Assembly (NCBI RefSeq): GCF_007747995.1
Contig: NZ_CP036276.1
Coordinates: 6,128,001-6,192,000, forward strand
From: Symmachiella dynata
GTDB taxonomy: Bacteria; Planctomycetota; Planctomycetia; Planctomycetales; Planctomycetaceae
Reading direction: 5' to 3'
Length of the DNA: 64,000 nt
The stretch's first letter is position 1; each line of letters begins with the position of its first letter. The notes under the pieces were generated by a model that ran no database searches, was not told the DNA's origin, and saw only the letters and a list, made by a program, of their open reading frames with translations. A program made the translations under genes and the position numbers. Below, piece after piece: positions 8,035 to 29,500 of this stretch.

Positions 8035-8094
8035 GTCGGTAGTTCCCTCTAATCTGGCAGGATTGCAGTCGGAATCCACAACCATCACCATCGG

Positions 8095-8138
8095 GGGATG
8101 CCACTAGCGGCGTGTCCGCCAGTGCGCGCAGGCATCCC
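8095..8138. repeat. Hairpin related to the dispersed TGCCACT palindromes, in the carB leader
   Basis: Outer arms GGGATGCC (8095-8102) and GGCATCCC (8131-8138) enclose a second stem, GCGG/CCGC, around a short loop. The sequence TGCCACT...GCGG...CCGCCAGT resembles the arms of the palindromic elements at 15870, 17970, 32007 and 44898. It sits about 60 bases upstream of the carB start on the template side, so it could end up in the carB leader RNA. Confidence 0.5.
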
Positions 8139-8342
8139 ACAAGGCTGTTTTTCGTGGAAATCTGCGTAGAAAACCCCAGTTTCAGGATTTTCGGCGCAAA
8201 GTTGGTCCAGGATAGCAAGATGGCCGGGAGAATCAAATCCAGGCGAGGGGGAATTTGGTGGAGGGAGACGAGATGTCGCCGGGAACAGGTGGAGCCGAAC
8301 ACCAAAACGCACTGTTCAGACTGGGCGATGTTTTGCCGCGGT

Positions 8343-9083
8343 TCAACGGACAAAGGTCAACTCGTCGTCGCCGTATTGCCGACAATCCATGCCATAGAAA
8401 ACGATGTATTCATCATCCATGTGATCGTCGCCAAGTGTTGCAAATGGCGCCGCTTGGTCAAGGAGAAACTCTCGCAACGTATAATTGTCCAGTTGCTTTA
8501 CGCATTCCTTGAGATCGACGTGGGTGTCAGACGGGAGAAAAAAGGGTGCGTCTCCAAACACAGCGCAATGATCGAAATATTTGTCGTAGTCGAGTACATT
8601 GCAGATATAGTAGTCATGATATTTTTCGTGCACGCGGAATAACCCGTTGTCCGGCAACTCGTCATCGTCGTTCCGAAAACATACGAGGTCGCTAATTACG
8701 ATTGTCGTTTCATCAAATGCTGCCTTTAATGGCGTTTCATTGCTGACACCATATCCACGCACGTATGGTGCCTCTAAAAAACTGGCGAGAGAGTCATATT
8801 CCAGCGGAGCCAGCAGATCAGATGTCTCACACTCACCAACAATTAAAATTGCGGAATGCTCGACAACATTCGACAAGTAAACGATAGCAGGACGTGAATC
8901 ATTTAAGTGAGCGATTCGATCAAGCTGAGACTTCCCGGATATCGCGTACGAGAAGATCGGGTCGTCGATGATTTCTGGAGTCGTGTCGAATTGAGTTGCT
9001 AATTGCGCTGCCATTTTTTTGAAATGGCGACGACCGCCACGAGGCAAGTGAAAGTCAAAAGGAGGGACAAAGGTTCGGAGCAT
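8343..9083 (-). CDS. Hypothetical protein, family not recognised
   Basis: A 246-residue acidic protein without recognised motifs, signal peptide or membrane segment. It starts MLRTFVPPFDFHLPRGGRR, with AGGTGA five bases before the ATG, which supports this start over the internal Met 24. The C-terminal half is rich in D, Y and aromatic residues (VHEKYHDYYICNVLDYDKYFDHC). Base composition is more AT-rich than carB or rtcB on either side, which may point to recent acquisition or to weak selection. No neighbours share an operon with it: carB lies about 300 bases downstream in the same direction, and rtcB about 120 bases upstream. Confidence 0.65.
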   Translation of the reverse strand: MLRTFVPPFDFHLPRGGRRHFKKMAAQLATQFDTTPEIIDDPIFSYAISGKSQLDRIAHLNDSRPAIVYLSNVVEHSAILIVGECETSDLLAPLEYDSLASFLEAPYVRGYGVSNETPLKAAFDETTIVISDLVCFRNDDDELPDNGLFRVHEKYHDYYICNVLDYDKYFDHCAVFGDAPFFLPSDTHVDLKECVKQLDNYTLREFLLDQAAPFATLGDDHMDDEYIVFYGMDCRQYGDDELTFVR

Positions 9084-9203
9084 GTTTCACCTATTCGCAT
9101 AAAGTAGCACTGTCTAACAATGCCATTCTGGGGTATCACTGGCACGACCAGCGCTGCCGTAGGCTCACGGAATTCGACAGACCTTCCGAGATTCACCGGC
9201 AAT

Positions 9204-13344: not shown

Positions 13345-15786
13345 TTATCGACGAACCTCGTCCACCGCTACAGCGTTCGCGGTTGTTTTCTTGCCGCTGA
13401 CTGCCTTCTCTAGATTTTCCAGCAGCATGGCCTCGGTGTACAAGTCGCGCAGGACGATCGCCTTATCGGGCTGACCGGCGGGAAAGATCACCGTGAGCGG
13501 TACGCTGATGCTTTCGAAGTTATCCAGCCAGCGTTTGATCTCCTCAGACTCGCCGGTGTAGTCAGCATAGAGCGTGACGACATCATGGTCTTGGACCAAA
13601 TCCAAAGTCTTTTTGGTGTTCAATGCAAACTTTTCGTTCCGTTTGCAGGTCAAACACCAGTCGGCAGAGAAATCGACCAGGACCGTTTTATTCTCGGCCA
13701 ACGATGCATTCAACGTGGCTTCCGTGAAAGGCTTCCAAGGCAGTTCCGTTTCGGATTTGAGCGTCAGATTGAACCCAAACAGACAAATAACGCCGGTCAG
13801 TACGATGGCAGAGACCCGCACGGTCGTTTTGTGACGGATGTGCGAGTTGATGTCGTACAAGTTGCCGATCATCCACAAACCGAGTGCAATGCCGAGCAGC
13901 ATGACCAACGCCGGGATGGTGTAGTCATCCTGCAGAATGTGCACGATGAAAATCACGGTTCCCATCAACACGAAACCGGCGAATTCCTTCAACCGCACCA
14001 TCCAGTTCCCCGGCTTGGGCAGCCATTTGACCGTCGAGGGAAATGCGCCGATCATCAGATACGGAAACGCCATCCCTAAGCCCATCATGCCCCACACGAG
14101 GTAAACAATCAGCGTCGGTTGTGTAATCGACCAACCCAGCGTCGCTCCTAAAAACGGCCCGCTACAGGGGGTCGCCAAGAGTGTGGCCAGAATACCTGTG
14201 GAGAAGGCCCCCACCAGTCCTTCTTGATGTTGATTGCCGGCTGCCGCGCCGACCATACCCGGCATGGGAATTTCAAACACGCCCAACAGGCTCAGTCCCA
14301 TAGCAAACACGACGCACGCCATGATCAGATTGAAATTCGCATTTTGAAACAGCCCGCCCCAACCGTAACCCAAAAAGACCGCCAAGGTTGCCAAAACCAT
14401 AAACACGGCAAGTACACCCAGCGAATACACAACATTGAGCTGAAAGATCCGTGCACGGCTTTCACCCGCTTGTTGTGCGAAACTCATCACTTTGATCGCA
14501 ATCACCGGCAACACACAGGGCATGACATTCAAAATCATGCCGCCAATGAAGGCGAACAGTAGATACATCGCCAATCCATAGTCGGAGTTCTCTTCTCCGA
14601 TGACGGTATAATTCGCGTCCCCACCATTGGCTTGCCGCTCCAACCGCATCTCGGCCCGCTGTGCCATGACCTCTTCGATAAACCCAGCCGCCATACCGCC
14701 CTTGATGGGTGCGGAAACACCAAACACCACGGGAGAAACTGCCGGTGTGGGGGTGACCGTCAGATTCCCCTCAAAATTGAACGCGACAGGCGAAACGCAT
14801 TTCACGCCGGTGCATGACTGAAAAGCGACCTCGCCGCCAATGGGGTAATCGCCGGGCGACGCATCGGCAGGAACCGTAATCGAACGGGTCCACACGACAC
14901 GCCCAGAATGTTCTAAAACTTCAATGCCGCCGAACAACGGTTCGTTCGCAGCGTGCGGAGCCGGTTCGACCGTCCAATCTCCATCGAGTTTTAACTCACC
15001 ATATTTTTGAATCTGTAACGCCGTCGCATACGGTCCCAATCCCTCAGGACGGGTTTGGTCCAAACCGTACGTATGCCAATCGTTTTTGATATTCGCTTCG
15101 ACGCGCAGTTCAACCGTCTCTCCCGGAGCTGCTTCGCCCGAGGAAAGCGAGACGAGCCACACGCTCGAATCATGTTCGAATTTCGTTTCACCGGTGGCCG
15201 CGAGGTTCGCTGACGATTTGCCTTCGCCGATCTTCACCGTGGCCTGAAAGGCTGACTTGCCGGGAACACAAAGCCCTTCGCTGCAGACCTGATGTGTGAT
15301 CTGCCCGGAAACGGTGACTTCTCCCGGACTGGCATCGGCGGGAATTTGAAATCGCCGGGAAAACGTGACCTGACCGTAGTATTCCTCCAGCCGCATTTGC
15401 GTCTCGCCCAGTTTCTCTTCATGAATCTGTGGCGCTCGAGAGGCGGTAAATGTTTTGCCCAATGGTTTCAACGGGCCATGGTCGTCCAGCGCAATCACCG
15501 TCGGTGATCCGCCAAACCCGGTTTGGGTCAGAGAAAAGGTATGCCAACCCTCAGCAACCGTGGCGGTCAACTGCAAAGTGACTTCGTCCCCCGGCGCAGC
15601 ATCAGCGGGCACGATTTTCGCGTCATATTTGATCGCGTTTTTCGCATCGTTGACCGGCGGCTTGCTGCCGAAGAGATCCGTCTGGAAAAGATCGTCCTGC
15701 GCCGCCGCAGTCTGTGGGGCGAGTCCCACCACGGCAACCAGCAGCAATGCAAATAGCGAACCGAAACCATTTCGGGACATTCTCAT
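13345..15786 (-). CDS. DsbD-type thiol:disulfide interchange protein
   Basis: Moves reducing equivalents from cytoplasmic thioredoxin across the inner membrane to periplasmic thiol proteins. In 813 residues: a signal peptide (FALLLVAVVGLAPQTAAAQ), two successive DsbD-alpha-like beta domains, each with a cysteine pair (CSEGLC near residue 180; CTGVKC near 325), a polytopic membrane domain of about eight helices with MPCVLP and TPCSGP cysteines, and a C-terminal thioredoxin-like domain with DWCLTCK near 710. Classical DsbD has one alpha domain; here there are two. The ATG at 15786 begins MRMSRNGFG; Met 3 is an alternative. No cytochrome c maturation genes are nearby. Confidence 0.92.
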   Translation of the reverse strand: MRMSRNGFGSLFALLLVAVVGLAPQTAAAQDDLFQTDLFGSKPPVNDAKNAIKYDAKIVPADAAPGDEVTLQLTATVAEGWHTFSLTQTGFGGSPTVIALDDHGPLKPLGKTFTASRAPQIHEEKLGETQMRLEEYYGQVTFSRRFQIPADASPGEVTVSGQITHQVCSEGLCVPGKSAFQATVKIGEGKSSANLAATGETKFEHDSSVWLVSLSSGEAAPGETVELRVEANIKNDWHTYGLDQTRPEGLGPYATALQIQKYGELKLDGDWTVEPAPHAANEPLFGGIEVLEHSGRVVWTRSITVPADASPGDYPIGGEVAFQSCTGVKCVSPVAFNFEGNLTVTPTPAVSPVVFGVSAPIKGGMAAGFIEEVMAQRAEMRLERQANGGDANYTVIGEENSDYGLAMYLLFAFIGGMILNVMPCVLPVIAIKVMSFAQQAGESRARIFQLNVVYSLGVLAVFMVLATLAVFLGYGWGGLFQNANFNLIMACVVFAMGLSLLGVFEIPMPGMVGAAAGNQHQEGLVGAFSTGILATLLATPCSGPFLGATLGWSITQPTLIVYLVWGMMGLGMAFPYLMIGAFPSTVKWLPKPGNWMVRLKEFAGFVLMGTVIFIVHILQDDYTIPALVMLLGIALGLWMIGNLYDINSHIRHKTTVRVSAIVLTGVICLFGFNLTLKSETELPWKPFTEATLNASLAENKTVLVDFSADWCLTCKRNEKFALNTKKTLDLVQDHDVVTLYADYTGESEEIKRWLDNFESISVPLTVIFPAGQPDKAIVLRDLYTEAMLLENLEKAVSGKKTTANAVAVDEVRR

Positions 15787-15869
15787 GGGGGTTTCCTGGG
15801 CAACTAAGAGCGATAAAGGGGAGTTTGAGATGCCAACTAGCAGTTTGTCATGACATTATTATTTGTGTT

Positions 15870-15945
15870 GGGTGCCACTGGCTTTGCCAGTGCAACACGA
15901 AATGGGGGCAAAACTTGTAAAACACTGGCAGAGCCAGTGGCACCC
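15870..15945. repeat. Dispersed palindromic element, copy 1
   Basis: Arms GGGTGCCACTG (15870-15880) and CAGTGGCACCC (15935-15945). Each arm is itself part of a small hairpin: CACTGGC-TTT-GCCAGTG on the left and a CACTGGC...GCCAGTG copy on the right. About 76 bases, no coding potential; similar elements occur at 17970, 32007 and 44898. Confidence 0.8.
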
Positions 15946-16570
15946 ACGTTTTTCAATTCGACGAAACGCTGGGGAGCGACAGCCAGACATTCACCGACAT
16001 TTCTTGGCGCCGGTAGAGACATCGTGACAGAGTATTATCGGAAGGCAATCCCGTGGCGGTCTGTGCCGTGGATTACAGTTCATGTTGTTGACAGTATTCG
16101 CACACGCCCAACTGAGAGCGCGGCGCACCAATCGCCGTATCATACATTAAATTGCAAAATCGCGGCAATCGGACTTGTTGAAGAATCGCCATCTCATTGC
16201 CCAGTTTTCTCACGTTGTCGCCCTCCAGCGTGCGGGGAATTCGTCGCCGTTAGAACCGTGGAATTAACGGTTTAATCGCGCTAACCGGCATGGGCTCAAC
16301 GGCATGCTGTGAGCGGGGCCTATCTCAAAACAGGCGAAAAACAGCGGATTCCAGCAGTAAATCTCAGGGGTTCCCATTTCCGCTACCTGGTCGACACTTC
16401 GTACGATTGATCCGGCACGCTGCGTGCAATACCATAATTAAGAAGAGAGAACCCGCATTTAACCGTGATTGAGCGTACTCTCCTTGTCACCACTTAAAAT
16501 TGTTGCCGTGAATTGTCGCAGCGAATACCTTGGTTGCATCAGCTAACGTTCCTATCTGGAGAGAACTCGA
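15946..16570. other. Divergent intergenic region upstream of the oxidoreductase gene
   Basis: About 620 bases between the palindromic element and the Gfo/Idh/MocA gene. No supported ORF. A TTGACA lies at about 16088 without a convincing -10. I see no riboswitch-like or operator-like structure. Confidence 0.4.
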
Positions 16571-17953
16571 ATGACCTCAACACGACGTGACTTTCTCAAA
16601 AAATCGGCCGCGACCGGTGCACTGGTTTCGGCCCCGTTGATCTGGACGCCTGACACGGCTTTTGGTCGTAATCTCAACAGCAAGCCGACCGTCGCCTCCA
16701 TCGGTGTCGGCGGCAGCCGGGGACGTTACAATCAAGGTGGACACATCGCGCGCAAGGCCTCGAAACTGGGAAAGACGATCGCCGTTTGCGATGTCGACTC
16801 CGTGCATACAGCTGAATTCAACAAGGATTTCGGAGGTAAGCTCAACGAGTACACCGACTACCGCGTTTTGCTTGAAAAAGAAAAACCGGACGTCGTCACC
16901 ATCGGCACCCCCGATCATTGGCACGTGCCGATCGCCATCGCCGCCCTCCGCGCTGGCTGTGACGTCTACTGCGAAAAGCCGCTCACGCTGACCATTCAAG
17001 AAGGTATCGACGTCCGCAACGTCGTCAAAGAGACCGGCCGCGTGTTTCAGGTCGGGACACAACAGCGTAGTGAAAACGAGAACCGGTTCCTCAAAGCGGT
17101 CGCCATCGTGCAAAGCGGTCGTCTGGGGAAAAACGTCAACGCCTACGTCGCCATCGGCGGTGCCCCCAGTGAAGGCCCCTTCGAATCGACTGCTGTCCCC
17201 GAAGGTCTCGATTGGGATTTCTGGGTCGGCCCCGCACCGAAGGCCGATTACTCCGAAGAACGCCGCAAGCAATTCCGCTGGTGGTTTGAGTATTCCGGCG
17301 GCAAAATGACCGACTGGGGCGCGCACCACATCGACATCGCCCAATGGGCGCTCGGCTACGACAAGAGCGGCCCGGTCGAAGTCGTGGGCAAGGGAACCTT
17401 CCCGCCGATCGTCCCCGACGATTTCAACTGGGATGCGTTCCTCAATGGCGACGCCAAACTTCCCAGCGGGTTCAATACCGCTGTGACGTTTGACATCGAT
17501 TTGAAATTCAAGAACGGCTCGGTGATGAACGTCAACGACGTTTACAAACGCCCGGACTCGAACATCGAATTCGGGAACGGCATCTTGTTCGAAGGTGAGA
17601 ACGGTCGCATCTTCGTCAACCGTGGCAAACTGGAAGGCAAACTCATCGATGAGTTGAGCGAATCCGACCACGAAGAAATCAATGCCTTGGTGGCCGAGTT
17701 GTACAAAGGCAAAACGCCTGGCAACCACATGCAGAACTTCTTCGAATGTCTGGAGGATCGCCAGCAACCGATTTCCGACGTCAGCACACATCACCGCACA
17801 ATGACTTCTTGCCATCTGTGCAACATTTCCGTGATGTTGGGCCGCGACCTGAAATGGGATCCCAAAGCCGAAAAATTCGTCGGCGACGAGCAGGCTCAAG
17901 CGTTAACCTCACGCCGCAGCCGCGATTCGTATTTGGTCGCCAGCGGAACGTAG
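16571..17953 (+). CDS. Tat-exported Gfo/Idh/MocA family oxidoreductase
   Basis: An NAD(P)-dependent sugar or polyol dehydrogenase-like protein. The N-terminus (TSTRRDFLKKSAATGALVSAP) is a twin-arginine signal, so the folded enzyme is predicted to leave the cytoplasm. The Rossmann domain shows SIGVGGSRGRYNQGG, the family lysine motif CEKPLTLTI near residue 140, and a WGAHHIDIAQWAL active-site histidine region near 255. At 460 residues it is typical of the large planctomycete set of exported Gfo/Idh/MocA proteins, whose substrates are mostly unknown. GGAG nine bases upstream supports the start. It is monocistronic: a palindromic element follows and the next gene is 240 bases away. Confidence 0.93.
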   Translation: MTSTRRDFLKKSAATGALVSAPLIWTPDTAFGRNLNSKPTVASIGVGGSRGRYNQGGHIARKASKLGKTIAVCDVDSVHTAEFNKDFGGKLNEYTDYRVLLEKEKPDVVTIGTPDHWHVPIAIAALRAGCDVYCEKPLTLTIQEGIDVRNVVKETGRVFQVGTQQRSENENRFLKAVAIVQSGRLGKNVNAYVAIGGAPSEGPFESTAVPEGLDWDFWVGPAPKADYSEERRKQFRWWFEYSGGKMTDWGAHHIDIAQWALGYDKSGPVEVVGKGTFPPIVPDDFNWDAFLNGDAKLPSGFNTAVTFDIDLKFKNGSVMNVNDVYKRPDSNIEFGNGILFEGENGRIFVNRGKLEGKLIDELSESDHEEINALVAELYKGKTPGNHMQNFFECLEDRQQPISDVSTHHRTMTSCHLCNISVMLGRDLKWDPKAEKFVGDEQAQALTSRRSRDSYLVASGT

Positions 17954-17967
17954 TCGATCATTGATTA

Positions 17968-18049
<82 letters not shown>

Positions 18050-18197
18050 GATGTTGAGTTGTTTAGTTGAGTTTTTTAAGCGGACGATGCATTAGCTTTG
18101 ATCACGGTGCGCCCCCATTACCGGGGCGCGCCGCATTTCCACTCGGCCTATACGGGCAGTACATTTCACCCAATTTGCGTTCACCAAGGAGATGGCC

Positions 18198-19304
18198 ATG
18201 GGATTGCTTGATAAACTGCGCGGCGAATTGGTTGATATTGTCGAATGGATTGACGACACCAACCACACACTCGTCTGGCGGTTCCCGCGGTACCACAACC
18301 AAATTAAAAACGGCGCGCAATTGATCGTGCGTCCCGGACAAACCGCTGTCTTCGTGCATCGTGGCGAATTGGCCGACGTCTTCGAGCCGGGACATTACGA
18401 ACTCACCACCGATAACCTGCCAATCCTGGGCACACTGCAAGGCTGGAAGCACGGCTTCGAAAGTCCGTTCAAATCCGAAGTCTATTTTGTCCGCACCACG
18501 CAGATCACCGATCTAAAGTGGGGCACCCCCAACCCGATCATGCTCCGCGACCCCGACTTCGGTCCCATCCGCCTCCGCGCGTTCGGCACCTACACCCTCA
18601 AAGCGGTCGAGCCGAAATCGCTGCTCAAAGAATTGGTCGGGACCGACAGCGATTTCTCGTCGGATGAAATCAACGAGTTGATGCGTTCAATCATCAGCGA
18701 AGCCTTTGCCACCATGCTGGGCAAATCGCAAATCGCCGCATTGGACCTCGCCGCCAACTACCGCGCCCTCTCAGGCGACCTGCGCGAGGCAGCCGTCGAA
18801 CGGGTCGACGATGAATACGGACTCGATATTCCGCAGTTATTCATCGTCAATATTTCACTCCCCGAAGAAGTCGAAAAGGCGCTCGACACCCGCAGCAGCA
18901 TGGGAGTCATCGGCGACATGAGCCGCTACCAACAGTTCCAAATGGGCAAAGCCATGACCGCCGCCGCGGAAAACCCGGCCGGTGGCGGCGCGTCCGAAGG
19001 GATGGGACTGGGGATGGGATTTGCCATGGCCAATCAAATGTTCCGCGGCGCGGGGCAAGCAGGACCCGGCATGCCCGCACCTCCGCCTCCCCCCGGCGCC
19101 GTCGCTTGGCACATTGCTGTGGGGGGCGAAACACAAGGCCCCTTCACTGCACAACAACTGTCGCAAGGCATCGCTGCTGGACAAGTCACAGCCGATTCGA
19201 TGGTCTGGTCCGCCGGCATGCCCGCCTGGACAACCGCCGGACAAGTCCCCGCACTCGCCTCGCAATTCGCCGCGACTCCGCCGCCACCGCCGCCGGCGAA
19301 GTAG
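18198..19304 (+). CDS. SPFH (band 7) domain protein with C-terminal GYF-like domain
   Basis: A 368-residue protein. The first 220 residues are SPFH/band-7-like (LVWRFPRYHNQIKNGAQLIV, then GQTAVFVHRGELADVFEPG) of the soluble virion-core/YdjI-related type, without a membrane anchor at the N-terminus. A Gly/Met-rich linker and a Pro-rich stretch (APPPPPG) lead to a C-terminal GYF_2-type domain (GETQGPFTAQQLSQGIAAG ... WSAGMPAWTTAGQVP). GYF_2 domains bind proline-rich partners, so scaffold or membrane-stress roles are possible; this is inference. The second ATG is chosen because GGAG sits six bases before it, while the ATG at 18192 directly abuts the site. Confidence 0.88.
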   Translation: MGLLDKLRGELVDIVEWIDDTNHTLVWRFPRYHNQIKNGAQLIVRPGQTAVFVHRGELADVFEPGHYELTTDNLPILGTLQGWKHGFESPFKSEVYFVRTTQITDLKWGTPNPIMLRDPDFGPIRLRAFGTYTLKAVEPKSLLKELVGTDSDFSSDEINELMRSIISEAFATMLGKSQIAALDLAANYRALSGDLREAAVERVDDEYGLDIPQLFIVNISLPEEVEKALDTRSSMGVIGDMSRYQQFQMGKAMTAAAENPAGGGASEGMGLGMGFAMANQMFRGAGQAGPGMPAPPPPPGAVAWHIAVGGETQGPFTAQQLSQGIAAGQVTADSMVWSAGMPAWTTAGQVPALASQFAATPPPPPPAK

Positions 19305-19347
19305 GCTTGAGGCGTGAGGGGACAGGCTTGAGGAAGGTACTTGCCGA

Positions 19348-20892
19348 TTACGGTTCGTTGGGCAACGCTGTCATTAACTGCGCGGCGGCAGTTTGGCTGT
19401 TTTCCATTGAGCAGACGGCGCTGCTGACGGCGACTCGCGTGGCGCCGGCTTCTGTGACCTGGGCGATGTTGTCCGCTGTGATGCCGCCGATGGCGTACCA
19501 GGGCAGGGTGATCTCCGCGGCAACTTGGCGGACGAATTCCAGCCCCGCCAGATCCGTGAACTGTTTCGTCGTGCTGGAAAAGACCGGACCGACGCCGATG
19601 TAATCGGCGCCCTCCATTACGGCTTGCCGCGCTTGTTCGATGGTGTGCGTGGAGACGCCGACTAATTTTTCCGTCCCCACGATCCGCCGGGCATCTTTGA
19701 CCGACAGTTCCTCTTGGCCGACATGCACGCCATCGGCATCGGTCAGCACGGCTAAATCGGGACGGTCGTTCATGATGAACAATGCTCCCGTTTCGCGGGT
19801 CCACTGCCGGACGCGGCGGCCGAATTCGACCAATTCTCGATCGGGCATTTCCTTTTCGCGTAGCTGCACAATGCTCACGCCCCCGGCAAGCGCCTCGCGA
19901 ATCGCCGGTCCGCTGCCGTGATGACACAGCGCTTCGCTGACCAGCAAATACAAATTGCGTCCAGCCAGCCGTGATTGATTGTGCAGCGTCGACAGGATCG
20001 ATTTTTCCAGCGTATAAAACCGATAGCGGAGTTGTTCGAATTGTCCGCCCAGGTCCGCAGCGAGGACTTTGCCGTACTCCTCCAACGTCCGCACCGCTTC
20101 CTGCACGCGTTTCAAATTCGCCTGTAGTACCTCTGCGGTGGAATCACGCTGCGCTTCGGCGGTTGTGGAAATCGTCGTCCCCACATCCGACAGGGTATCC
20201 CGCGCCGCTGCCAAGTCGTGCGGCGCGATTGTGGAGATTGCCGCAGTGAAATCGTGCCGCCAACTTTTGAGCAGCGTAGACAAATGCGCATCGTCGCTGA
20301 TGAAACGGACGTAATCCTCGACGACACGCACCCCTTCGCGAGCGCGGTTGGCAGCAGCGTCGATGATCCGCAGCGCATTGTGCCGTTGCGAAACACTGGG
20401 TTGTGAGAATTCGATCCTGACGTCGGTGACCAGCGGCTCAGCGGAGAATCCTGTTTTCTCATCCACAAGTTGCGTGAGCTGTTCGCGCTGCACGCCTTGT
20501 TCGTGGAGCCACGTCGAAACATCGGAGTCGACGACCAGCAGTCCCCAGAGCAGATGTTCGGTCCCGACCTCACTGTGCCGTCCTTGAATACCCGCTAAGT
20601 GCCGAGCTTCCTGAACGGCCAAAGCGGCCTGTTCATCCATCGGGACCAGCTTAGACTGTTCCGATTCAGCGGTCGTCTCAGCAGTCGGCACGCTCTTCTC
20701 ATCAGGGAAAACCGTCTCCACTGTGGAAATCGCCACATCAAATCCGCCCAGAATCTCGCTCGCACGCGATTCTTCCAGCAAAAGGCTACGCAATAGATGC
20801 AGCGGAGCCACGGTTGCCGATTGGCCGGCTGTGGCAATTTCGGTCGCCCGGTCTAGAACTCTTTGGGCAGCGGGAGTCAACGGTTGTTGCAT
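19348..20892 (-). CDS. Clp-N / ThiD2 / ThiE fusion: thiamine phosphate synthase
   Basis: Predicted to condense HMP-pyrophosphate and the thiazole phosphate into thiamine phosphate. Three parts in 514 residues. Residues 1-150: two ClpA/ClpC N-terminal repeats (LTPAAQRVLDRATEIA ... LHLLRSLLLEE; then EQAALAVQEARHLAG ... GTEHLLWGLLV). Residues 170-305: a ThiD2-like helical domain (RIIDAAANRAREGVRVVEDY). Residues 312-510: the ThiE barrel with VQLREKE, MNDRPDLAV, DGVHVGQEELS, GVGPVFSSTTK and AIGGITADN. ThiD2-ThiE pairs are known; a Clp-N domain in front is unusual. It is transcribed away from clpC, whose own N-domain has the same repeats. The start ATG at 20892 is the first in frame. Confidence 0.9.
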   Translation of the reverse strand: MQQPLTPAAQRVLDRATEIATAGQSATVAPLHLLRSLLLEESRASEILGGFDVAISTVETVFPDEKSVPTAETTAESEQSKLVPMDEQAALAVQEARHLAGIQGRHSEVGTEHLLWGLLVVDSDVSTWLHEQGVQREQLTQLVDEKTGFSAEPLVTDVRIEFSQPSVSQRHNALRIIDAAANRAREGVRVVEDYVRFISDDAHLSTLLKSWRHDFTAAISTIAPHDLAAARDTLSDVGTTISTTAEAQRDSTAEVLQANLKRVQEAVRTLEEYGKVLAADLGGQFEQLRYRFYTLEKSILSTLHNQSRLAGRNLYLLVSEALCHHGSGPAIREALAGGVSIVQLREKEMPDRELVEFGRRVRQWTRETGALFIMNDRPDLAVLTDADGVHVGQEELSVKDARRIVGTEKLVGVSTHTIEQARQAVMEGADYIGVGPVFSSTTKQFTDLAGLEFVRQVAAEITLPWYAIGGITADNIAQVTEAGATRVAVSSAVCSMENSQTAAAQLMTALPNEP

Positions 20893-21634
20893 TTTGGATG
20901 TGCGGCTTTGGGGCCAAATCGGCGAAGTTCAATGAAATTGGTTTATTGTCGAGACAGTCAGAGCCGGTTTACGACTTTCATGCACAGCAAAGGTGTCTTC
21001 CAATGCAGGGCAATCTTTGCAAGTCATGCACTCGCCGCCGCTTAACAGGCTCCGCCTATCGGAACGTCTTGCCATTGGCGCGAACGGTTACTAGAATTCG
21101 CGGTATATCCTGATAATTTCAATGGATGAGGAAGACTTTGCAGTTGGGCGAGTTTGGGTTTGTTCGACCAGCAGCCTCGGAACTTGCATTGTACCGAAAA
21201 GGGAATCGAATTGTGAAGTTGCTGCTTTCACAAGGATCGTGAAAGTTGGCTCTGCCGCTTCTGTTGATCTTTCCGGTTCTATGGAGACGAGAACACCGTC
21301 TCCACGAGTCAGAATATAACGGATGACTGTGGAAACCCAATCAACTTTCCCGGTAGTAACGTCTGCGATTCCCGCAGCCTCAGGAACTTTGATGTTGCGG
21401 AAAGGAAACCCCGTTCACACATCGAAACGTGAAGTATTGTTAAGTGACCGTCATCCCGCGGAAGGCACGGATCGTAGAATCATTGTTACGAGCGTTGCGA
21501 TCGGCATCTGTGACGTGTGATGGCGGATTAAAAAAGAAGACTGAAACATAGGTTTTGAAATAATAAAACAAGCGCCGATAGTCAGCGTTTGAGAAATTGT
21601 CTTGCACCCTCGCAAGATTTAGGGAGAACCTCGC
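20893..21634. other. Divergent promoter region between the thiE fusion and clpC
   Basis: About 740 bases without a supported gene. It must carry the promoters of both genes. I searched by eye for a CIRCE element (TTAGCACTC-N9-GAGTGCTAA) and a CtsR-type heptad repeat and saw neither. The 60 bases before clpC are AT-rich, consistent with a promoter, but no clear hexamer pair can be chosen. Confidence 0.45.
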
Positions 21635-24172
21635 ATGTACGAGCGATTTACCGACCGAGCCCGAAAAGTGATGCAACTCGCCAACCAGGAGGCGCAGCGG
21701 TTCAATCACGAATATATCGGCACGGAACACATTCTGTTGGGACTGGTCAAGGAAGGCTCCGGCGTTGCCGCCAATGTCCTGAAAAACCTGGACGTCGACC
21801 TGAGAAAGATCCGTTTGGAGGTCGAAAAGATCGTCCAATCCGGTCCCGATATGGTGACGATGGGCAAATTGCCGCAAACGCCGCGGGCTAAAAAAGTCAT
21901 CGAATACTCGATGGAAGAAGCCCGGAACCTGAATCACAACTACGTCGGCACCGAACACATTCTGTTGGGCTTGCTGCGAGAACAAGAAGGTGTGGCCGCC
22001 CAGGTGTTGATGAACCTCGGCCTGAAACTGGAAGACGTTCGTGAGGAAGTGTTGAACTTGCTCGGCCATGGACTGGAAGGCGCCGAATCGGGCGAACGCA
22101 GCCCCGCCGCCGGAAGTCCCAAAGCGGGCAAAAGCAAAACTCCCGCCCTGGACAGCTTCGGTCGCGATCTGACCGAATTGGCCAAGCAGGGCAAACTCGA
22201 TCCGGTGATCGGTCGTACCGATGAAATCGAACGGGTCATCCAAATCCTCTGCCGACGTCAAAAGAACAACCCGGTCTTGCTGGGTGAAGCGGGCGTGGGC
22301 AAGACGGCCATCGTCGAGGGCTTTGCCCAAATGGTCATCGATAATAACGTTCCGGACTTGCTGCGGGACCGCCGGATTGTCGTGTTGGACTTGGCGATGA
22401 TGGTCGCTGGAACCAAATATCGTGGTCAATTCGAAGAACGCATCAAAGCGGTTATGAACGAAGTGCGTCGTGCCAAGAACACGATCTTGTTCATCGACGA
22501 ACTGCACACTCTGGTCGGTGCCGGTGGCGCGGAAGGGGCGATCGATGCCTCCAACGTGCTCAAACCTGCTTTGAGCCGGGGCGAATTGCAGTGCATCGGA
22601 GCCACCACGCTCGACGAGTACCGCAAATACATCGAAAAAGATGGCGCCCTGGAACGCCGGTTCCAGACCGTGATGGTCGAACCGCCCAGTGCGACCGAGA
22701 CTGTGGAAATCCTCCGCGGCTTGCGGGATCGGTACGAATCGCACCATCGCGTGCAAATCACCGATGACTCGTTGGAAGCGGCTGTGGAATTGTCCAACCG
22801 TTACATCACCGGCCGTTGCCTGCCGGACAAGGCGATCGACGTTATCGACGAAGCGGGTGCTCGTATCCGCCTCAAATCGATGGTCCGCCCGCCCGATTTG
22901 AAGGAACTTGATGAAGAAATCGAAGGCCTGAATCAAGCCAAAGAAGAAGCGGTCGCCAATCAAGACTTCGAAAAAGCGGCCAGCTTGCGTGATCAAGCTG
23001 ACAAGCTGAAGAAGAAGAAAGAATCGTTGACCCGCGATTGGCGTGAGAAATCCCGCGAAACCGACGGTGTCGTCGACAACGATGTGATCGCCGAAGTCGT
23101 CGCCAAGATGACCGGCATCCCGCTGACACGCTTGTCGAGCGAAGATGCGGTGCGGTTGCTGCAAATGGAAGATGAACTACACAAAAAGGTCATCAGCCAG
23201 GAAGAAGCAATTAAACAGGTCGCCAAGGCGGTCCGTCGTAGTCGTAGCGGGTTGAAAGATCCGCGGCGTCCCACGGGTGTCTTCCTGTTCGCCGGTCCGA
23301 CCGGTGTCGGGAAAACATTACTGGCCAAAACGTTGGCGGAATTCATGTTCGGCGATGCCGAATCGCTCATTCAAATCGACATGAGCGAATACATGGAGAA
23401 ACACAACGTCAGCCGTTTGATCGGTGCCCCTCCTGGTTATGTCGGTTACGAAGAAGGGGGCCAACTGACGGAAAAAATCCGCCGCCGTCCCTATGCCGTG
23501 GTGCTGTTGGACGAAATCGAAAAAGCGCACCCCGACGTGTTCAATATGCTGCTGCAAATTATGGAAGAGGGACACCTCACCGATAGTTTCGGCCGCAAAG
23601 TCGATTTCAAAAACGTGATCTTGATCATGACCACCAACGCCGGTGCCAAGGTGATTCAATCCGGTAGCGAATTTGGTTTCGTCAAGAAAGACCTCGATCA
23701 CAGCTACGATGGCATGAAACGCCGTCTGATGCACGAAATCGAAGACGAATTCAAGCCGGAGTTCTTAGGCCGTGTGGATGACGTCATCGTGTTCAAGCAT
23801 CTCGACCGCGAGAACTTGAAGCTGATCATCGACATCGAGTTGGAGAAGGTCTACGAACGTCTTGGAGAACGAGGCCTGAATCTGGTCCTGACCGACGAAA
23901 GCAAAGAACTGATCATCGACAAGGGTGCATCGGACATCGATTACGGTGCCCGCCCACTGCGTCGCTGCATCGAAACCTTTATCGAAGATCCGCTTTCCGA
24001 AGAGTTGCTCCGCGACGCCTTCGAAGGCAAAAACACAATCACCGTTCGCGTCAAAGAAGTCGGCGATACCAAGCAACTCGACTTCGATGCCACGTTCGAA
24101 GAATCAGCTGAGCCCGAAATGGCTGCGGTTGGTTCCGAGGACGAAAATAGCGGCGAATCCGAAGAATCGTAA
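21635..24172 (+). CDS. clpC: ATP-dependent Clp protease ATPase subunit ClpC
   Basis: An AAA+ unfoldase that feeds ClpP and disaggregates proteins. The 845 residues are the normal ClpC length and order: N-domain with two repeats ([36 protein letters not shown]), D1 with Walker [14 protein letters not shown] near residue 215 and Walker [12 protein letters not shown], a middle coiled coil with a UVR-like segment ([18 protein letters not shown]), and D2 with [16 protein letters not shown] near 553. The C-terminal acidic tail is short. ATG at 21635 is preceded by GGGAG. A strong terminator follows. No clpP or McsA/McsB partners are in the window. Confidence 0.98.
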
Positions 24173-24201
24173 AACGCGAGTCCAATCGCGAAAAAACAAG
24201 A

Positions 24202-24235
24202 AACGCTCCGGTTCTTACAACCGGGGCGTTTTTTT
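24202..24235 (+). terminator. Intrinsic terminator after clpC
   Basis: A 12-base-pair stem AACGCTCCGGTT / AACCGGGGCGTT with one G-T pair and loop CTTAC, followed by seven T. It sits 30 bases after the clpC stop and separates clpC from the methyltransferase gene. Confidence 0.9.
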
Positions 24236-24282
24236 AATTCCCCTTAGTTCCCAACTCCACTTTTTGCCAGAAGGACCCGGCG

Positions 24283-24966
24283 ATGCCGCTGCAACGCATT
24301 CTCGAACCGGAAGTCATGGACTCCGCCCAGGAAGCGATCGACTACGACACGATGGACCATTCGAACGTCAATCGCGTCTTCGTTGATGACCTATTGGCAT
24401 TCTCGCAGTTTGAAAAGCCGTCCGTCACTGAGATGCGCGTATTGGATGTTGGCACCGGGACCGCACAGATTCCAGTGGAATTATGTGGGCGGCAACTCCC
24501 GCTGCACGTCACCGGGGTCGACCTCGCTGAAGAAATGCTCAAAGTCGGCAACCAAAACGTCGCCGCCGCCGGTTTCGCGCAGAACATCACGCTCGAACGC
24601 GTCGACGCGAAGCAACTTCCCTACGCGGCGGGAACATTCGACGCTGTGATATCCAACAGCATCGTGCACCACATTCCCGACCCCTTGCAGGTGATCGCTG
24701 AAATGGCCCGCGTGGTGCGCGCGGGCGGAGTGCTCTTCGTCCGCGATCTGCTGCGTCCCGATGACGAAGCGGAACTGGAGCAGTTAGTCAGCACCTATGC
24801 GGCAGACACCAACAACGAGCAACGACAACTCTTTCGACAATCGTTGTATGCGGCGCTGACGGTCGCAGAGGTCAAATCGCTGCTAACGACTGCGGGTCTA
24901 CCAGCACAGTGGTGTGCGCAAACGACCGATCGCCACTGGACCATCGCCGGGCGATGCGGAGTGTAA
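24283..24966 (+). CDS. Class I SAM-dependent methyltransferase
   Basis: A 227-residue Rossmann-type methyltransferase. Motif I is RVLDVGTGTAQIPVELC near residue 48, the acidic post-I residue is in VTGVDLAEEML, and the segment NSIVHHIPDPLQVIAEMARV near 127 matches motifs II-III of the UbiE/type 11 group. The acceptor substrate cannot be told. AAGGA seven bases upstream of the ATG supports the start. It lies downstream of the clpC terminator, so it is likely a separate unit. Confidence 0.88.
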   Translation: MPLQRILEPEVMDSAQEAIDYDTMDHSNVNRVFVDDLLAFSQFEKPSVTEMRVLDVGTGTAQIPVELCGRQLPLHVTGVDLAEEMLKVGNQNVAAAGFAQNITLERVDAKQLPYAAGTFDAVISNSIVHHIPDPLQVIAEMARVVRAGGVLFVRDLLRPDDEAELEQLVSTYAADTNNEQRQLFRQSLYAALTVAEVKSLLTTAGLPAQWCAQTTDRHWTIAGRCGV

Positions 24967-25290
24967 CGGTTGTAAGCAATCGAAGGCGCCCGCACTCGTT
25001 GCGCCGTGCGCAATTCTTGTGCAGGCTGTGTGGATTGTGAAGAGTCCTTCATAGTCAACACCGAGATTTTATCTCCAAACTACTCAAGCCTCTCAAAACG
25101 CAATGTCGATGGTGGTGTTGGGATGCAGCAATGTCCCCACGCAATCGAAGGGGCTGTTAGGATTCGGTCCTCGCAGTCGGGAGCAAGGCAGCGGCAGAGA
25201 GAGCGATTGAGGGAGCCGGAGAGTGTCCGGTCGTAGCCACGGAGGCGATGCTGATTTGATTGACGCGAAATCATCATGTTGGAGTATTGA
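24967..25290. other. Gap with no supported gene
   Basis: About 320 bases between the methyltransferase and a small ORF. No supported ORF or clear hairpin terminator. Confidence 0.4.
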
Positions 25291-25560
25291 ATGACCCATC
25301 ACGCCGATGTGGATACTGGACATCGTAAAGTTGTCAATTCTTGTTTGGGACAGTCGTTACACCGTTTGCAGCACAACATGAATCATGTCCGACAAAGCCA
25401 ATCGCGGGACGAAGGGGAATTTCTGTCCTGGTTGAAGCAATGGTCCAAGCGCAGCGATCAAATCGCCATGCGGTTGGAGCTGATCGACATGCAACTCGAC
25501 CGCATGTTCCCCGCCCCCGAACCGGAGGTGCAGTTGCGGGTCATCGACGCCGACCGCTGA
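25291..25560 (+). CDS. Small hypothetical protein
   Basis: An 89-residue, Gln/His/Arg-rich protein that is probably helical (VNSCLGQSLHRLQHNMNHV; then FLSWLKQWSKRSDQIAMRLEL, and a C-terminus with MQLDRMFPAPEPE). GGAG seven bases before the ATG supports translation. No signal peptide or membrane segment. It converges with the YdjM-like gene 33 bases away. No family recognised; it could be a planctomycete-specific helical adaptor, but no function is claimed. Confidence 0.55.
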   Translation: MTHHADVDTGHRKVVNSCLGQSLHRLQHNMNHVRQSQSRDEGEFLSWLKQWSKRSDQIAMRLELIDMQLDRMFPAPEPEVQLRVIDADR

Positions 25561-25592
25561 GCAACGGGCCGCGGTATAGCCCAGCGCGCCGT

Positions 25593-26243
25593 TTATCCTA
25601 GCGCGCCGCAGACAACGATATACGCGGCCACGCCCAGCAGCGTGGCCGCCGCGATCACTTGCAACCGATTGCGCCACCGGTACATCGCCAGCATCCCCAT
25701 GACAAAAATAATCGTCATGCCTGGATCGCCCCAGTGGACGTGCGGATAAATCCACCCCTCTGTGGAAAACGGCCACAGCAACTGCAATTTCCAGTCGCCC
25801 AACGTTGCCGTCCCGGACACCACCAAATCGGCGGCAAGATGGCTCAGCGCAGCCGCCAGTGCCACAAGCGTCCACACGGCATATCCGGCAACTGTTCGCT
25901 CCCGGCGTAGCGGCAGCGATCCCAGTCCTTGCTCGGCAGGGAGTACCAGCCCACAGCGCCGCAGTCCCCGTGCACTGACATTGGCCAGTCGCGTGACGAC
26001 ATCGAATCGATAATCGAGGACGCCGATCAGGATCCCCAGCAGGCCGCACGTCAAGAAACTATGCCCCCAGACTCTGTGAGCCTGATCAAACAGCACTGGA
26101 CCTAGCACCAACGTCAGGCCGTCCCAATCCGGGCTGATTGCCACCAACCCCGCCAGGGCGACCACCTGCCAGCCATAGCGGCGGTGTAAACCCGTAGCCA
26201 ATGCTCCGTTGATGCCCAGCAACGCATGTTCAATTGTTGTCAT
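25593..26243 (-). CDS. YdjM-like membrane-bound metal-dependent hydrolase
   Basis: A 216-residue polytopic protein of the LexA-binding inner-membrane hydrolase family (YdjM type). It shows TTIEHALLGINGALATG with the early histidine, then AISPDWDGL, HRVWGHSFLTCGLLGI, ALSHLAADLVV and WPHVHWGDPG-like segments that place His/Asp residues as predicted metal ligands, separated by four or five membrane helices. The family's biochemical role is poorly known. The start ATG at 26243 is the first of the frame. It points away from the kinase gene, leaving a 320-base divergent region (26244-26562) in which I see no gene. Confidence 0.85.
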   Translation of the reverse strand: MTTIEHALLGINGALATGLHRRYGWQVVALAGLVAISPDWDGLTLVLGPVLFDQAHRVWGHSFLTCGLLGILIGVLDYRFDVVTRLANVSARGLRRCGLVLPAEQGLGSLPLRRERTVAGYAVWTLVALAAALSHLAADLVVSGTATLGDWKLQLLWPFSTEGWIYPHVHWGDPGMTIIFVMGMLAMYRWRNRLQVIAAATLLGVAAYIVVCGALG

Positions 26244-26562
26244 AGACGCCAGTGCTTCAAACTGTTCGGAAGATTACTACAACCAGTATGACCGGACCGC
26301 CGCCCGATTGCCAATTGGGGCATCCTGCATCCACAACCGCCAAGAAACAATGCAGCAGTTCGGCGAAAAAAACAAAAGTCGTTGTCCTTCGCTGTGGCTG
26401 CTATGATAAACTGGATGAGGCGCTCTACGAAGTTCTCTACGCGGATTTCTACAAGTACCGGCGGATCACCCGTCGGACGAATCGTCAGTGGACGAAGATG
26501 AATGTGTGCAGTGCGATCCGATCATGCGATCGTTCCACACATTTGCGGCAAGCAGGCATTTC

Positions 26563-29500
26563 ATGAGTAGCGTCGATCCCTTGGAAACATCCAGCCCAGT
26601 TGAACCGGCACCGCGGGTTCCTGAGGGAGCATGCGCCCAGCTGATGTTTCGCGGACCGGACGGGCAAACCATCGAGAAGAGCGTCCTCCGCTATACGACG
26701 TTGATCGGTTCCGGCCCCCGCTGCAACGTGCAACTGCTCGATCCGGAAATCGCCGAAGCGCACTGTATCGTGACCGTCGAATCGGGCGTGCTCCGCGTCC
26801 GCGACCTCCGCAGCGCCGCGGGCACACGCGTGAACGGCCAGTCCATCCAAGTCGCCACCCTGGCCGAAGGGGACACGATCGAGGTGGGCCGCTTTTCGTT
26901 TTTAGTGGCGACAGATCTCCAAGGCGCTCCCCCCATCCCCGATGTGCCCACAGCCACTGAGGGTGAAGAGCCGCCCTTTGCTGAACTCACATTCGTTGGG
27001 CCCGATGGCGCGCCGCTGAAAAAGAATATCCTCCGGCCATCAACGTTGATCGGATCGGCCCCCGGCTGCAATATGCAACTGGTCGCCAGCGCTATCAGCC
27101 ATGCGCATTGTGTGCTGACGATGGAGTACGGCAGCCTACGTGTGCGAGACTTGCGGAGCGAAACAGGAACCAAGGTCAATGGCGTCTCCGTCGAAATCGC
27201 CGCTCTGACAGATGGCGATAAGCTGGAGATCGGCTCCTTCGCATTTTTGGTGAAGACCAACCTTGCCCCACGTCCTCTACTGAGCGGACTACCATCACAG
27301 CCTCTCCCCGTCGAGACAACCACAGCTTCAGCCCGTGAGGAATTGGCGGCCCTCCAGTCCGAACTGGCGGCTGCGCAGGCTGAATTGGCCGAGGCACAAA
27401 AGGAACTGGCCCAAACACAAGCCCAGCAGTCTGCGGCTCAAGCAAGTTTGACCGAAGCGACGGAGAAACTCGAACTTCAACAGCAAAAATTCCAACAACA
27501 GCTCACGGAGTTCGAAACCAGGCAGGCGGAATTTCAAAACGCACAACAAGAACTCGAGCGTGGGCAACAGGAACTCGAGCGCGATCGCGAGCAGCTGGAA
27601 ACGAAACAGCAAGCCGCTGATGAGGCAGCAGCGCAATTTCAGCAGCAGCAGAAAGATCTACAGGCTGAACAATCACAGTTCGCCGAACGGCAGCGGGAAT
27701 GGGACACCAAAATCCAGGAGCACCAGGATCACGTCCAACACTCAGAAGCCGCGCTGGTCGCGCTCGAGTCCAACCGCAAGCAACTCGAACAACAGGACGC
27801 GGAACTCACCGCTGCCCGCGCGGAATTGGGCGAACGCGAACAACTCCTAGCTGACCGTGAATCCGCAACGGCCGCACGGCAGTCGACGTTGGATTCTCGA
27901 CAAACCGAGTTGGAAAGCCGACAGAGCGCGTTGGATGAGTTGCGTCAAACATTAAATCAGCGCGACGCCGAGTCGCTGTCTACACTCGACCGTATTACGC
28001 AACAGCAAAAAGCCTTGGAAACGGAACAGGGCCAATTGACTGCGCAGCAGAAGGCGGCCGAGGATCAGCGTCGCGTCTTGGATCAATTGCGTGAGGAGCT
28101 AGACCAGCGCGATACAAAATCACAGTCGCAGCTCGATCGCCTGGCGCAGCAACAAGAGTCGTTGGAAGCGGAACGCGTTAAGTTTACCGCCAAACAACAA
28201 GACTTGGCTGCGGAAAAACAGCGGCATCAAGAGGAGGTCGCCAAGTTCGAGACAGAATGGATGCGCGTCGAAGAGCAAAAAGACCGGGACCAAGCCAACG
28301 GCGAAATGCTGCGGATGCGTTTTGACGAACTCGAAGCGAAACGTGCCAAATTCTTATCAGAGCAAGAAACCTTCAGCGCAGCCAGTGTCGCATTCGAAGC
28401 CGCACAAGCTGCCGCTCAAAAAACGCAGGATGAAGAAAAACTCAAACTGCAGGAACAACAAACGCTCATAGAGTCGCGTGAAGCCCAGGTTGCTCGCCGC
28501 GAACAAGCAGCCGAAGAAGCACAAGCCGCGCATGATTCAGCAGTCGCCGCGCTGCAACAGGATCAAGAAAACCTGGAAACGGCAAAACATGAGTTGGCGC
28601 AGCAACAAGAATCGCTCGACGAACTTCGCCGCCAACTGGACGACGAAACCCGCAAACTCGCCGAGCAAGAACAAGCACACGACGCACGTCACGGCGAACT
28701 ACAGCAAGAATCGGAATCCTTGCGTGAGCAGCAACAAGCGCTCAAGGAACAACAAACCTCCCTCGCGCAGCAAGCCACTGAACAGGACCATCAACGGGAA
28801 GAATTGGAACAACAGCGGCAAGAAATCCTCGCCAGCGAGCAACGTCTGCGGGAAGAACAGGATGCCCACGCCCGCGAAGCCGCCGAGACCAGCGCTGCGA
28901 GGTTGGCGTTTGAGACCGCTCAGTCGACAGCAAAAACGGCTACCCTCGAAATCGAGGAACAAAACCGCGAAACCGCCCAGCGACTTGAGCAGGAACAGGA
29001 GCGTTTGACCGCGGACCAACAAAAGTTAGCCGACCAGCAAGCGGAGCTGGAGCAACAAACCCGGCAGTTCGAAATCGAGCGGCGGGAATTGAGCGAACTC
29101 AAAATCGAACTGGAAGAACAACAGGCGACGCTCAAGCAGAAGACAGACTTATTGGAACAATCCGCTGCCGCCCACGAAACCACCGTGCAAACCTTCGCTG
29201 CGCAAACGGCCGAACACGACACCGCGCAGCAAACGCTCCACGAAGAGCGGGCGCAGTTGGAAACAGCGCAAATGGAATTCCTCCAGGCGCTGGCGGTCTT
29301 GAAAGCGGACCAGAATGAACTCCAGCAGCAGCGCGAAGCGGCCGTGCGGGCCGAAGAGGTTATAACGCGTGAACGGGAAACACTACAGCAAGTCCGTGCT
29401 GCGCTCGATGTAGAGTTAGAGACACTGAGTCAGCAACAGGCCGAACATGCCCAACAGGCGGCCCGGCTGACTGACGAAGCGGCGGCTGTCGAAAAAGCTC

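What the first reader, a model, noticed from the sequence alone, without database searches (positions are those of the whole stretch)
19348..20892. Clp N-terminal repeats fused to ThiD2-ThiE, divergent from clpC
The N-terminal 150 residues carry two repeats of the ClpC N-domain type, followed by a ThiD2-like domain and a complete ThiE barrel. The clpC gene starts 740 bases away in the opposite direction and has the same repeats. This suggests thiamine phosphate synthase could be a ClpC substrate, adaptor or anti-adaptor, or that the Clp-N came by duplication of clpC next door. ThiD2-ThiE fusions are known; I do not know of a Clp-N addition.
Basis: partly seen in the sequence, partly recalled or inferred. 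Interest (0 to 1): 0.75.

Follow-up and report, generated by a model that had tools for sequence, protein, structure and literature searches.

The report
Thiamine enzyme with Clp chaperone N-domain
Across a whole class of planctomycete bacteria, the enzyme that makes vitamin B1 phosphate usually carries an extra front domain of the kind that Clp protein-destroying machines use to recognise their targets, which hints that vitamin B1 synthesis and protein turnover are linked there.

Summary
The 514-aa ORF 19348-20892(-) encodes two Clp_N repeats (residues 5-146), a disordered linker, ThiD2 and ThiE, with no frameshift. Foldseek matches the modelled N-domain to ClpC, ClpC2, ClpT and ClpB N-domains. 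clpC starts 742 bp away, divergently.

The architecture is old. Of 148 Planctomycetia genomes, 118 carry a Clp_N domain on the ThiE protein, 29 do not, one is undetermined. Absence is concentrated in Pirellulales-type families and fits repeated loss (trees weak at depth). The domain is under purifying selection in the close pairs tested.

'Copied from clpC next door' fails for the window: its N-domain is not especially ClpC-like, and many fusions have no clpC nearby. It holds for one other genus, whose fusion carries a fresh ClpC N-domain copy (58% and 50% identical to own ClpC in its two genomes), with clpC as neighbour. So a Clp N-domain was put on this enzyme at least twice.

Best reading: a flexibly tethered interaction module coupling the cell's only detected thiamine-phosphate synthase to the Clp network. 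Partner and direction are unproven. I found no description in the papers searched. New variant of a known kind.

The parts
19348..20892 (-). whole fusion gene, 514 aa: Clp_N x2 - linker - ThiD2 - ThiE
20455..20892 (-). Clp N-domain, residues 1-146 (repeat 1 about residues 5-61 = 20710-20880; repeat 2 about residues 85-146 = 20455-20640)
   Evidence: Pfam Clp_N, PDB profile search, AF2 helices, Foldseek
20395..20454 (-). flexible linker, residues 147-166 (pLDDT under 50 at 150-159)
20002..20370 (-). ThiD2 domain, residues 175-297
   Evidence: Pfam PF17792 140.2 bits
19414..19953 (-). ThiE (TMP-TENI) barrel, residues 314-493
   Evidence: Pfam PF02581 206.7 bits; matches solved thiamin phosphate synthases
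20893..21634 (.). 742-bp divergent intergenic region between the fusion gene and clpC; no Rfam match inside it at E<=1, no CIRCE-like site in the window at up to 3 mismatches
21635..24172 (+). clpC, 845 aa, divergent neighbour with two Clp_N repeats and two AAA modules

Best explanation
The gene encodes the cell's only detected thiamine-phosphate synthase (ThiE) fused to ThiD2 (known elsewhere as an HMP-P kinase; recalled), with a Clp N-domain on a flexible tether at its front. Shown here: domain make-up, predicted fold, class-wide conservation, purifying selection in the pairs tested, and in another genus a domain copied from clpC. Inferred: the Clp N-domain is a protein-protein interaction module. 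In Clp unfoldases this domain is where adaptors, marked substrates and toxins bind, so on ThiD2-ThiE it most likely lets the enzyme share or compete for partners of the ClpC N-domain (adaptors, McsB/phospho-arginine clients, exposed hydrophobic segments) or dock on the Clp machine, so that enzyme level or activity follows proteostasis. Direction (substrate handle versus decoy) is not decided.
For: 118 of 148 Planctomycetia genomes keep the domain on the ThiE protein, including one, G394, whose protein lacks ThiD2. In 10 close pairs chosen by me, N-domain dN/dS is 0.10-0.20 in 8 and 0.43 and 0.57 in 2. In genus g333 the N-domain is a ClpC N-domain copy: in G498 57.7% identical to its own ClpC over 142 aa without gaps, against 26-28% to the nearest other fusions; in G500 50% over 147 aa (7 gap positions) against 27%. 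Its nearest relative in the tree carries the old type: a Clp N-domain as such seems to be what is kept. The domain is predicted folded and tethered. It sits on the genome's only TMP-TENI match, and the three Phos_pyr_kin (ThiD-type) matches are partial. Each of 59 class genomes has an ATP:guanido phosphotransferase domain, which I read as McsB-type. Precedent for a Clp link to the pathway: THIC is listed among proteins enriched with trapped Arabidopsis CLPC1 (PMC8889267, passages).
Against: No interaction was tested. Residues by which S. aureus ClpC's N-domain binds phospho-arginine or anchors on ClpC (PMC12583610, passages) are mostly not kept in the 81 old-type fusion rows (three genomes counted twice): R9 position R in 0, E32 position E in 3; only the E106 position (E in 61, D in 10) and the T7 helix cap (T/S in 81) hold, and these two also match the planctomycete ClpB. 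N-domain divergence is high and its constraint is weaker than that of ThiD2-ThiE and clpC in the same pairs. 29 of 148 genomes do without it, so it is dispensable in those lineages. ClpC adjacency is not tied to the fusion. ClpS, a known N-domain partner (recalled), is absent in 15 of 15 genomes of the window's family.
Confidence: 0.4

Rival explanations
1. The Clp N-domain fold has been re-used inside the enzyme: it binds a small molecule or peptide, dimerises, or touches ThiD2/ThiE to tune catalysis, with no link to Clp proteases.
For: Charged residues typical of the fusions and different in the planctomycete ClpC and ClpB used for comparison: R11 in 79 of 81 rows, E41 in 77, R43 in 56; loss of the ClpC anchor residues; presence where clpC is not adjacent; kept on ThiE when ThiD2 is gone.
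Against: Disordered linker; replacement by a fresh ClpC N-domain in one genus argues that generic Clp N-domain properties suffice.
Confidence: 0.28
2. Decoy or sponge, like mycobacterial ClpC2: the N-domain soaks up toxic peptides, phage proteins or adaptors that would otherwise hit ClpC, with the enzyme as carrier.
For: ClpC2 chains are the only Clp chains at E<=0.001 in the single-sequence PDB search (8b9o 1.1e-5, 8ad9 8.8e-4); ClpC2 competes with ClpC1 for cyclomarin (PMC10030653, abstract and Discussion); stand-alone Clp_N proteins occur in some planctomycetes.
Against: Why a vitamin enzyme should be the carrier in 118 of 148 genomes is unexplained; no expression data. With the family profile, ClpB and ClpC chains score above ClpC2.
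Confidence: 0.15
3. Evolutionary hitchhiker: a chance inverted copy of a clp 5' end in front of thiDE, kept without function.
For: clpC is the divergent neighbour in many lineages (50 of 100 loci); Clp_N copies occur; lost repeatedly.
Against: Class-wide retention (118 of 148), purifying selection in the pairs tested, conserved motif columns, second acquisition in G498/G500.
Confidence: 0.1

Closest known systems
ThiD2-ThiE bifunctional thiamine phosphate synthase (NCBIfam NF002727)
   Same: ThiD2 plus ThiE in one chain, full-length match above the curated cut-off; chains matching both parts without the extension also in Cyanobacteria, Phycisphaerae and others
   Different: Those have no Clp N-domain; the extension adds about 165 residues
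ClpC / ClpB N-terminal domain (PF02861)
   Same: Two four-helix repeats, fold match TM about 0.7-0.8
   Different: No AAA modules; most ClpC pocket and anchor residues not kept
Mycobacterial ClpC2 (Clp N-like domain without AAA; PMC10030653)
   Same: Clp N-domain outside an unfoldase; best single-sequence Clp match in PDB
   Different: ClpC2 is a small binder and auto-repressor; here the partner is a metabolic enzyme
Plant ClpT1/ClpT2
   Same: Clp N-domain fold without AAA (fold match)
   Different: ClpT accompanies the ClpPR core (recalled); not fused to an enzyme

Membership tests
ThiD2-ThiE thiamine phosphate synthase (NF002727) | Whole-protein score above curated cut-off 335 | tested here: met
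   390.6 bits, residues 167-512
ThiD2-ThiE thiamine phosphate synthase (NF002727) | Catalytic columns of ThiE conserved | tested here: met
   Q343, R345, N375, D387, T442, K443 invariant and K347, D376, S414 at 90% or more in 55 sequences; that these are the active-site residues is recalled
Clp_N domain (PF02861) | Score above gathering threshold and two-repeat all-helical fold | tested here: met
   39.5 vs 20.7 bits; AF2 and Foldseek
ClpC/ClpB unfoldase | AAA+ modules | tested here: not met
   No AAA match in the fusion
Phospho-arginine reader of the ClpC type | Both pocket glutamates (E32 and E106 of ClpC) | tested here: not met
   Window: L31 and E112; in 81 fusion rows E32 position E in 3, E106 position E in 61 and D in 10
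Recent duplicate of neighbouring clpC | N-domain closest to own ClpC | tested here: not met
   Window 42.0 bits ClpB HMM vs 23.0 ClpC HMM; met instead in G498 and G500
ClpC2-type sponge | Binds ClpC-targeting peptides and competes with ClpC | not testable with these tools
   needs binding assays

The most novel reading that the evidence does not exclude
Planctomycetia control vitamin B1 synthesis after translation: a Clp N-domain built onto their thiamine-phosphate synthase lets the Clp/McsB quality-control network set enzyme abundance (or lets the enzyme report thiamine status to ClpC by competing for its adaptors), in a class where 47 of 59 sampled genomes show no TPP riboswitch; the coupling was strong enough that one genus re-supplied the domain with a fresh copy from clpC.
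Probability: 0.15. Interest if true: 0.85.

Novelty: new variant of a known kind. Interest (0 to 1): 0.6.

Why it matters
Clp N-domains are drug targets and the entry gate for regulated proteolysis. A class-wide, anciently fixed Clp N-domain on a vitamin-synthesis enzyme would be a natural experiment on what this domain can do away from the AAA motor, and a possible direct link between proteostasis and cofactor supply in organisms where riboswitch control of thiamine was not found in most sampled genomes. It is easy to test: one gene, one removable domain.

Tried and rejected
Frameshift or one-assembly artefact: rejected. TPP riboswitch or other RNA in the intergenic region: none (window 14000-30000 at E<=1; its one match, far below the gathering score, lies elsewhere). 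CIRCE element: none in the window. Separate Clp_N gene upstream in genomes lacking the extension: none over 15 bits; eight f2, f3 and f4 loci have a membrane-protein-like ORF there instead (by eye). ClpS as obligatory partner: not supported (0 of 15 in the window's family, 40 of 44 in the rest). Strict trade-off between Clp_N and TPP riboswitch: not supported (f2 lacks both, f101 has both). Deep origin from ClpB versus ClpC: left open; the N-domain tree has many long branches. Fusions outside the class: 20 phylum loci with long open frames were fetched; none of their 1660 ORFs matches the fusion, ClpB or ClpC N-domain HMMs at E<=0.01; the list of matches was cut, so this is partial. Literature: (listings) gave no description of the architecture; the library is open-licence PMC only. 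PMC10149685 was searched for Clp_N architecture terms without a useful passage.

Limits of my own counts: the N-domain HMM was built from 41 sequences, 30 of them from the loci it was then run on; 41 of the 71 positive loci were not in it (lowest 19.6 bits). Among the 82 N-domain rows three genomes appear twice (L098/L248, L101/L255, L103/L241), and L104's N-domain is a doubtful, very diverged member.

Full report
WHAT IS THERE. The ORF at 19348-20892 on the minus strand starts with ATG and runs 514 codons without interruption. Pfam finds Clp_N (39.5 bits, gathering 20.7), ThiD2 (140.2) and TMP-TENI (206.7); NCBIfam calls residues 167-512 thiamine phosphate synthase, 390.6 bits against a cut-off of 335. 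Repeat 1 of Clp_N is weak by single-sequence search (only repeat 2 was reported for this gene in the six-frame genome scan). An alignment of 30 fusions makes it plain: as a profile it matches solved ClpB (4.5e-15) and ClpC N-domains (1.7e-14) over nearly the whole domain. AlphaFold2 on the full protein (55 sequences, mean pLDDT 91.5, pTM 0.73) gives two four-helix repeats, a linker with pLDDT under 50 at 150-159, an all-helical ThiD2 and a ThiE barrel. The N-domain modelled alone (12 sequences, pLDDT 87.3, pTM 0.83) matches ClpC1, ClpC, ClpC2, ClpT and ClpB N-domains at TM about 0.7-0.8; of the 50 listed matches 46 are titled as Clp/Hsp100 proteins and four are malarial entries. The full-length model's PDB list is led by thiamin phosphate synthases.

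SURROUNDINGS. clpC (21635-24172, plus strand, 845 aa) is divergent, 742 bp away. The gene downstream (18192-19304, plus, Band_7_1 and GYF_2 domains) is convergent, so the fusion gene looks monocistronic (inference). The own genome (7.77 Mb, one contig) has three genes with Clp_N matches: clpC, the fusion, and a third at 5.798 Mb whose reading frame I read as ClpB. It has one TMP-TENI match, the fusion. The three Phos_pyr_kin matches cover only about half of the model, so a separate classical ThiD was not found.

HOW WIDESPREAD. A profile of N-domain plus ThiD2 (A3, 36 sequences) was run on 148 Planctomycetia genomes. In 115 one match spans both parts; 31 match ThiD2 only. Reading the loci raised the first number: G396 and G420 do carry the N-domain (longer spacer), and G394 has Clp_N plus ThiE without ThiD2. 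Total: 118 of 148 with, 29 without, G499 (81% complete) undetermined. The 29 are 16 of 16 in f2, 6 of 6 in f106, 1 of 1 each in f105, f107 and f110, 2 of 3 in f3, and 2 of 37 in f1 (G361, G464, one genus). Family codes are the tool's. Named members from the contig scan include Singulisphaera acidiphila DSM 18658, Planctomycetes bacterium Pan216, Gemmatales and Isosphaeraceae MAGs and three Pirellulales MAGs; a Pirellulaceae MAG lacks the domain. Outside the class, 20 loci with long open frames showed no such domain; the list they were taken from was cut.

HISTORY. A ThiD2-ThiE tree of 120 proteins needs at least 9 changes of N-domain state; inside the class the absences lie in a Pirellulales-type cluster and in one f1 genus. 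A careful tree of 50 also gives 9 (8-10 in 90% of bootstraps). Counts do not tell gain from loss, and the outgroup does not help: the Phycisphaerae rows sit in an open fork among class groups, and the two outgroup rows are not one side of a branch. With 118 of 148 positive across the deep groups of the class I read this as early gain and repeated loss (inference). Gene order: of 100 loci read (100 of the 148 genomes, not a random pick, several cut by contig ends), clpC lies divergent to thi in 50: 27 of 71 with the N-domain and 23 of 29 without (one more, G433, has a clpC cut by the contig end and is not counted). In f5, f101, f102 and f104 it is 0 of 31. So the pairing is not what makes or keeps the fusion.

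WHERE THE DOMAIN CAME FROM. Scored with HMMs of planctomycete ClpB and ClpC N-domains, 79 of 82 fusion N-domains score higher with ClpB (window 42.0 vs 23.0 bits). The ClpC set is nearly invariant (Neff 1.28), which favours ClpB. In reverse, the fusion profile scores ClpC (median 74.2) and ClpB (70.0) alike. I leave the deep origin open but exclude a recent copy of clpC for the window. One genus differs: in G498 the fusion's N-domain is 57.7% identical to its own ClpC over 142 aa without gaps (up to 61% to other ClpCs) and 26-28% to the nearest other fusions; clpC is its divergent neighbour. Its congener G500, cut by a contig end, has the same type: 50% to its own ClpC over 147 aa, 27% to the nearest other fusion, Pfam Clp_N 93.3 bits. 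The sister of G498 in the tree, a Pirellulales MAG (L102), has the old type (95/86 support). A 397-genome search with the G498 domain listed no other protein spanning the query, but its list is cut and filled with clpC genes and did not even show G500, so it says little. Copies of the clpC 5' end as separate genes also occur: three repeats beside clpC in G257 and others.

CONSTRAINT. In 10 close pairs that I chose, N-domain dN/dS is 0.10-0.20 in eight and 0.43 and 0.57 in two f5 pairs; ThiD2-ThiE 0.03-0.15; clpC 0.004-0.017 in the six pairs that had it. Some dS values exceed 1 and are rough. Conserved in the 81 old-type rows: T/S at position 6 (81), R11 (79), E41 (77), A96 (74), L37 (74), E112 (61, D in 10), R43 (56). 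Of ClpC sites that bind phospho-arginine or anchor the N-domain (PMC12583610, passages read), R9 is kept in 0 of 81 and E32 in 3; E106 and the T7 cap are kept, as in ClpB. So a phospho-arginine reader of the ClpC type is not supported for the window protein.

MECHANISM. I commit to a tethered interaction module that links the enzyme to the Clp network, at 0.4. For it: what this domain does elsewhere (adaptors, marked substrates and toxic peptides act through the N-domain, PMC12583610; ClpC2 works as a free N-domain sponge, PMC10030653, abstract and Discussion read), retention on a flexible linker, and replacement by a real ClpC N-domain in one genus. An ATP:guanido phosphotransferase domain, read as McsB-type, is present in 59 of 59 class genomes; ClpS is absent in 15 of 15 of the window's family. 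THIC, another thiamine enzyme, is listed among proteins enriched with trapped plant CLPC1 (PMC8889267, passages). Against it: no binding data, anchor residues lost, weaker constraint than the enzyme part, dispensable in 29 genomes. Substrate handle, adaptor competition and sponge cannot be told apart here; an intramolecular role is the main rival (0.28).

REGULATION CONTEXT. The TPP riboswitch model finds 0 of 39 genomes in the window's family and 12 of 59 in the class, 11 of 13 f101 and 1 of 1 f104 (stricter filters; 5 of the 12 over the gathering score), while ringing in 10 of 14 control genomes. This leaves room for other control of thiamine synthesis, but the pattern does not complement the Clp_N pattern: f2 lacks both, f101 has both.

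NOVELTY. Both halves are known; the combination was not described in any paper found (open-licence PMC only). New variant of a known kind, class-wide and old.

Noticed in passing
L048 (G257) frame 6408-7298 minus: Stand-alone protein of three Clp_N-like repeats (by eye) between the thi fusion and clpC; its front matches clpC's first repeat. A 5' duplication of clpC at this very locus.
   Followed up: partly
L324 1260-2675 plus (G400); L322 992-1438 plus (G069); L323 1102-1626 minus (G396): Other Clp_N-only frames: a 472-residue array about 400 bp upstream of clpC, and frames of 149 and 175 residues.
   Followed up: partly
L326 1057-2481 minus (G402); L325 1822-3405 plus (G400): ClpC-type N-domains followed by what look by eye like degenerate AAA parts: possible decoy or pseudo-unfoldase genes.
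   Followed up: no
window's family, whole genomes: No TPP riboswitch match in 39 of 39 genomes of the window's family; in the class 12 of 59, 11 of them in family code f101.
   Followed up: partly
L063 8661-9356 plus and like loci in f2, f3, f4: A membrane-protein-like ORF (by eye: motif CLWPGL, hydrophobic segments, tail) lies between thi and clpC, co-directional with clpC; a similar one is seen in G500 (L301); not seen in the window.
   Followed up: no
L272 (G394) 7848-9101 plus: Clp_N fused straight to ThiE with no ThiD2 match, divergent from clpC.
   Followed up: partly
window 26488-30972 plus: 1494-aa protein with two FHA stretches and a C-terminal protein kinase domain, and between them a long Q/E-rich stretch that looks like coiled coil by eye.
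   Followed up: no
G000:C1:982503-983102: ATP:guanido phosphotransferase (McsB-type by my reading) domain; present in 59 of 59 Planctomycetia genomes sampled.
   Followed up: partly
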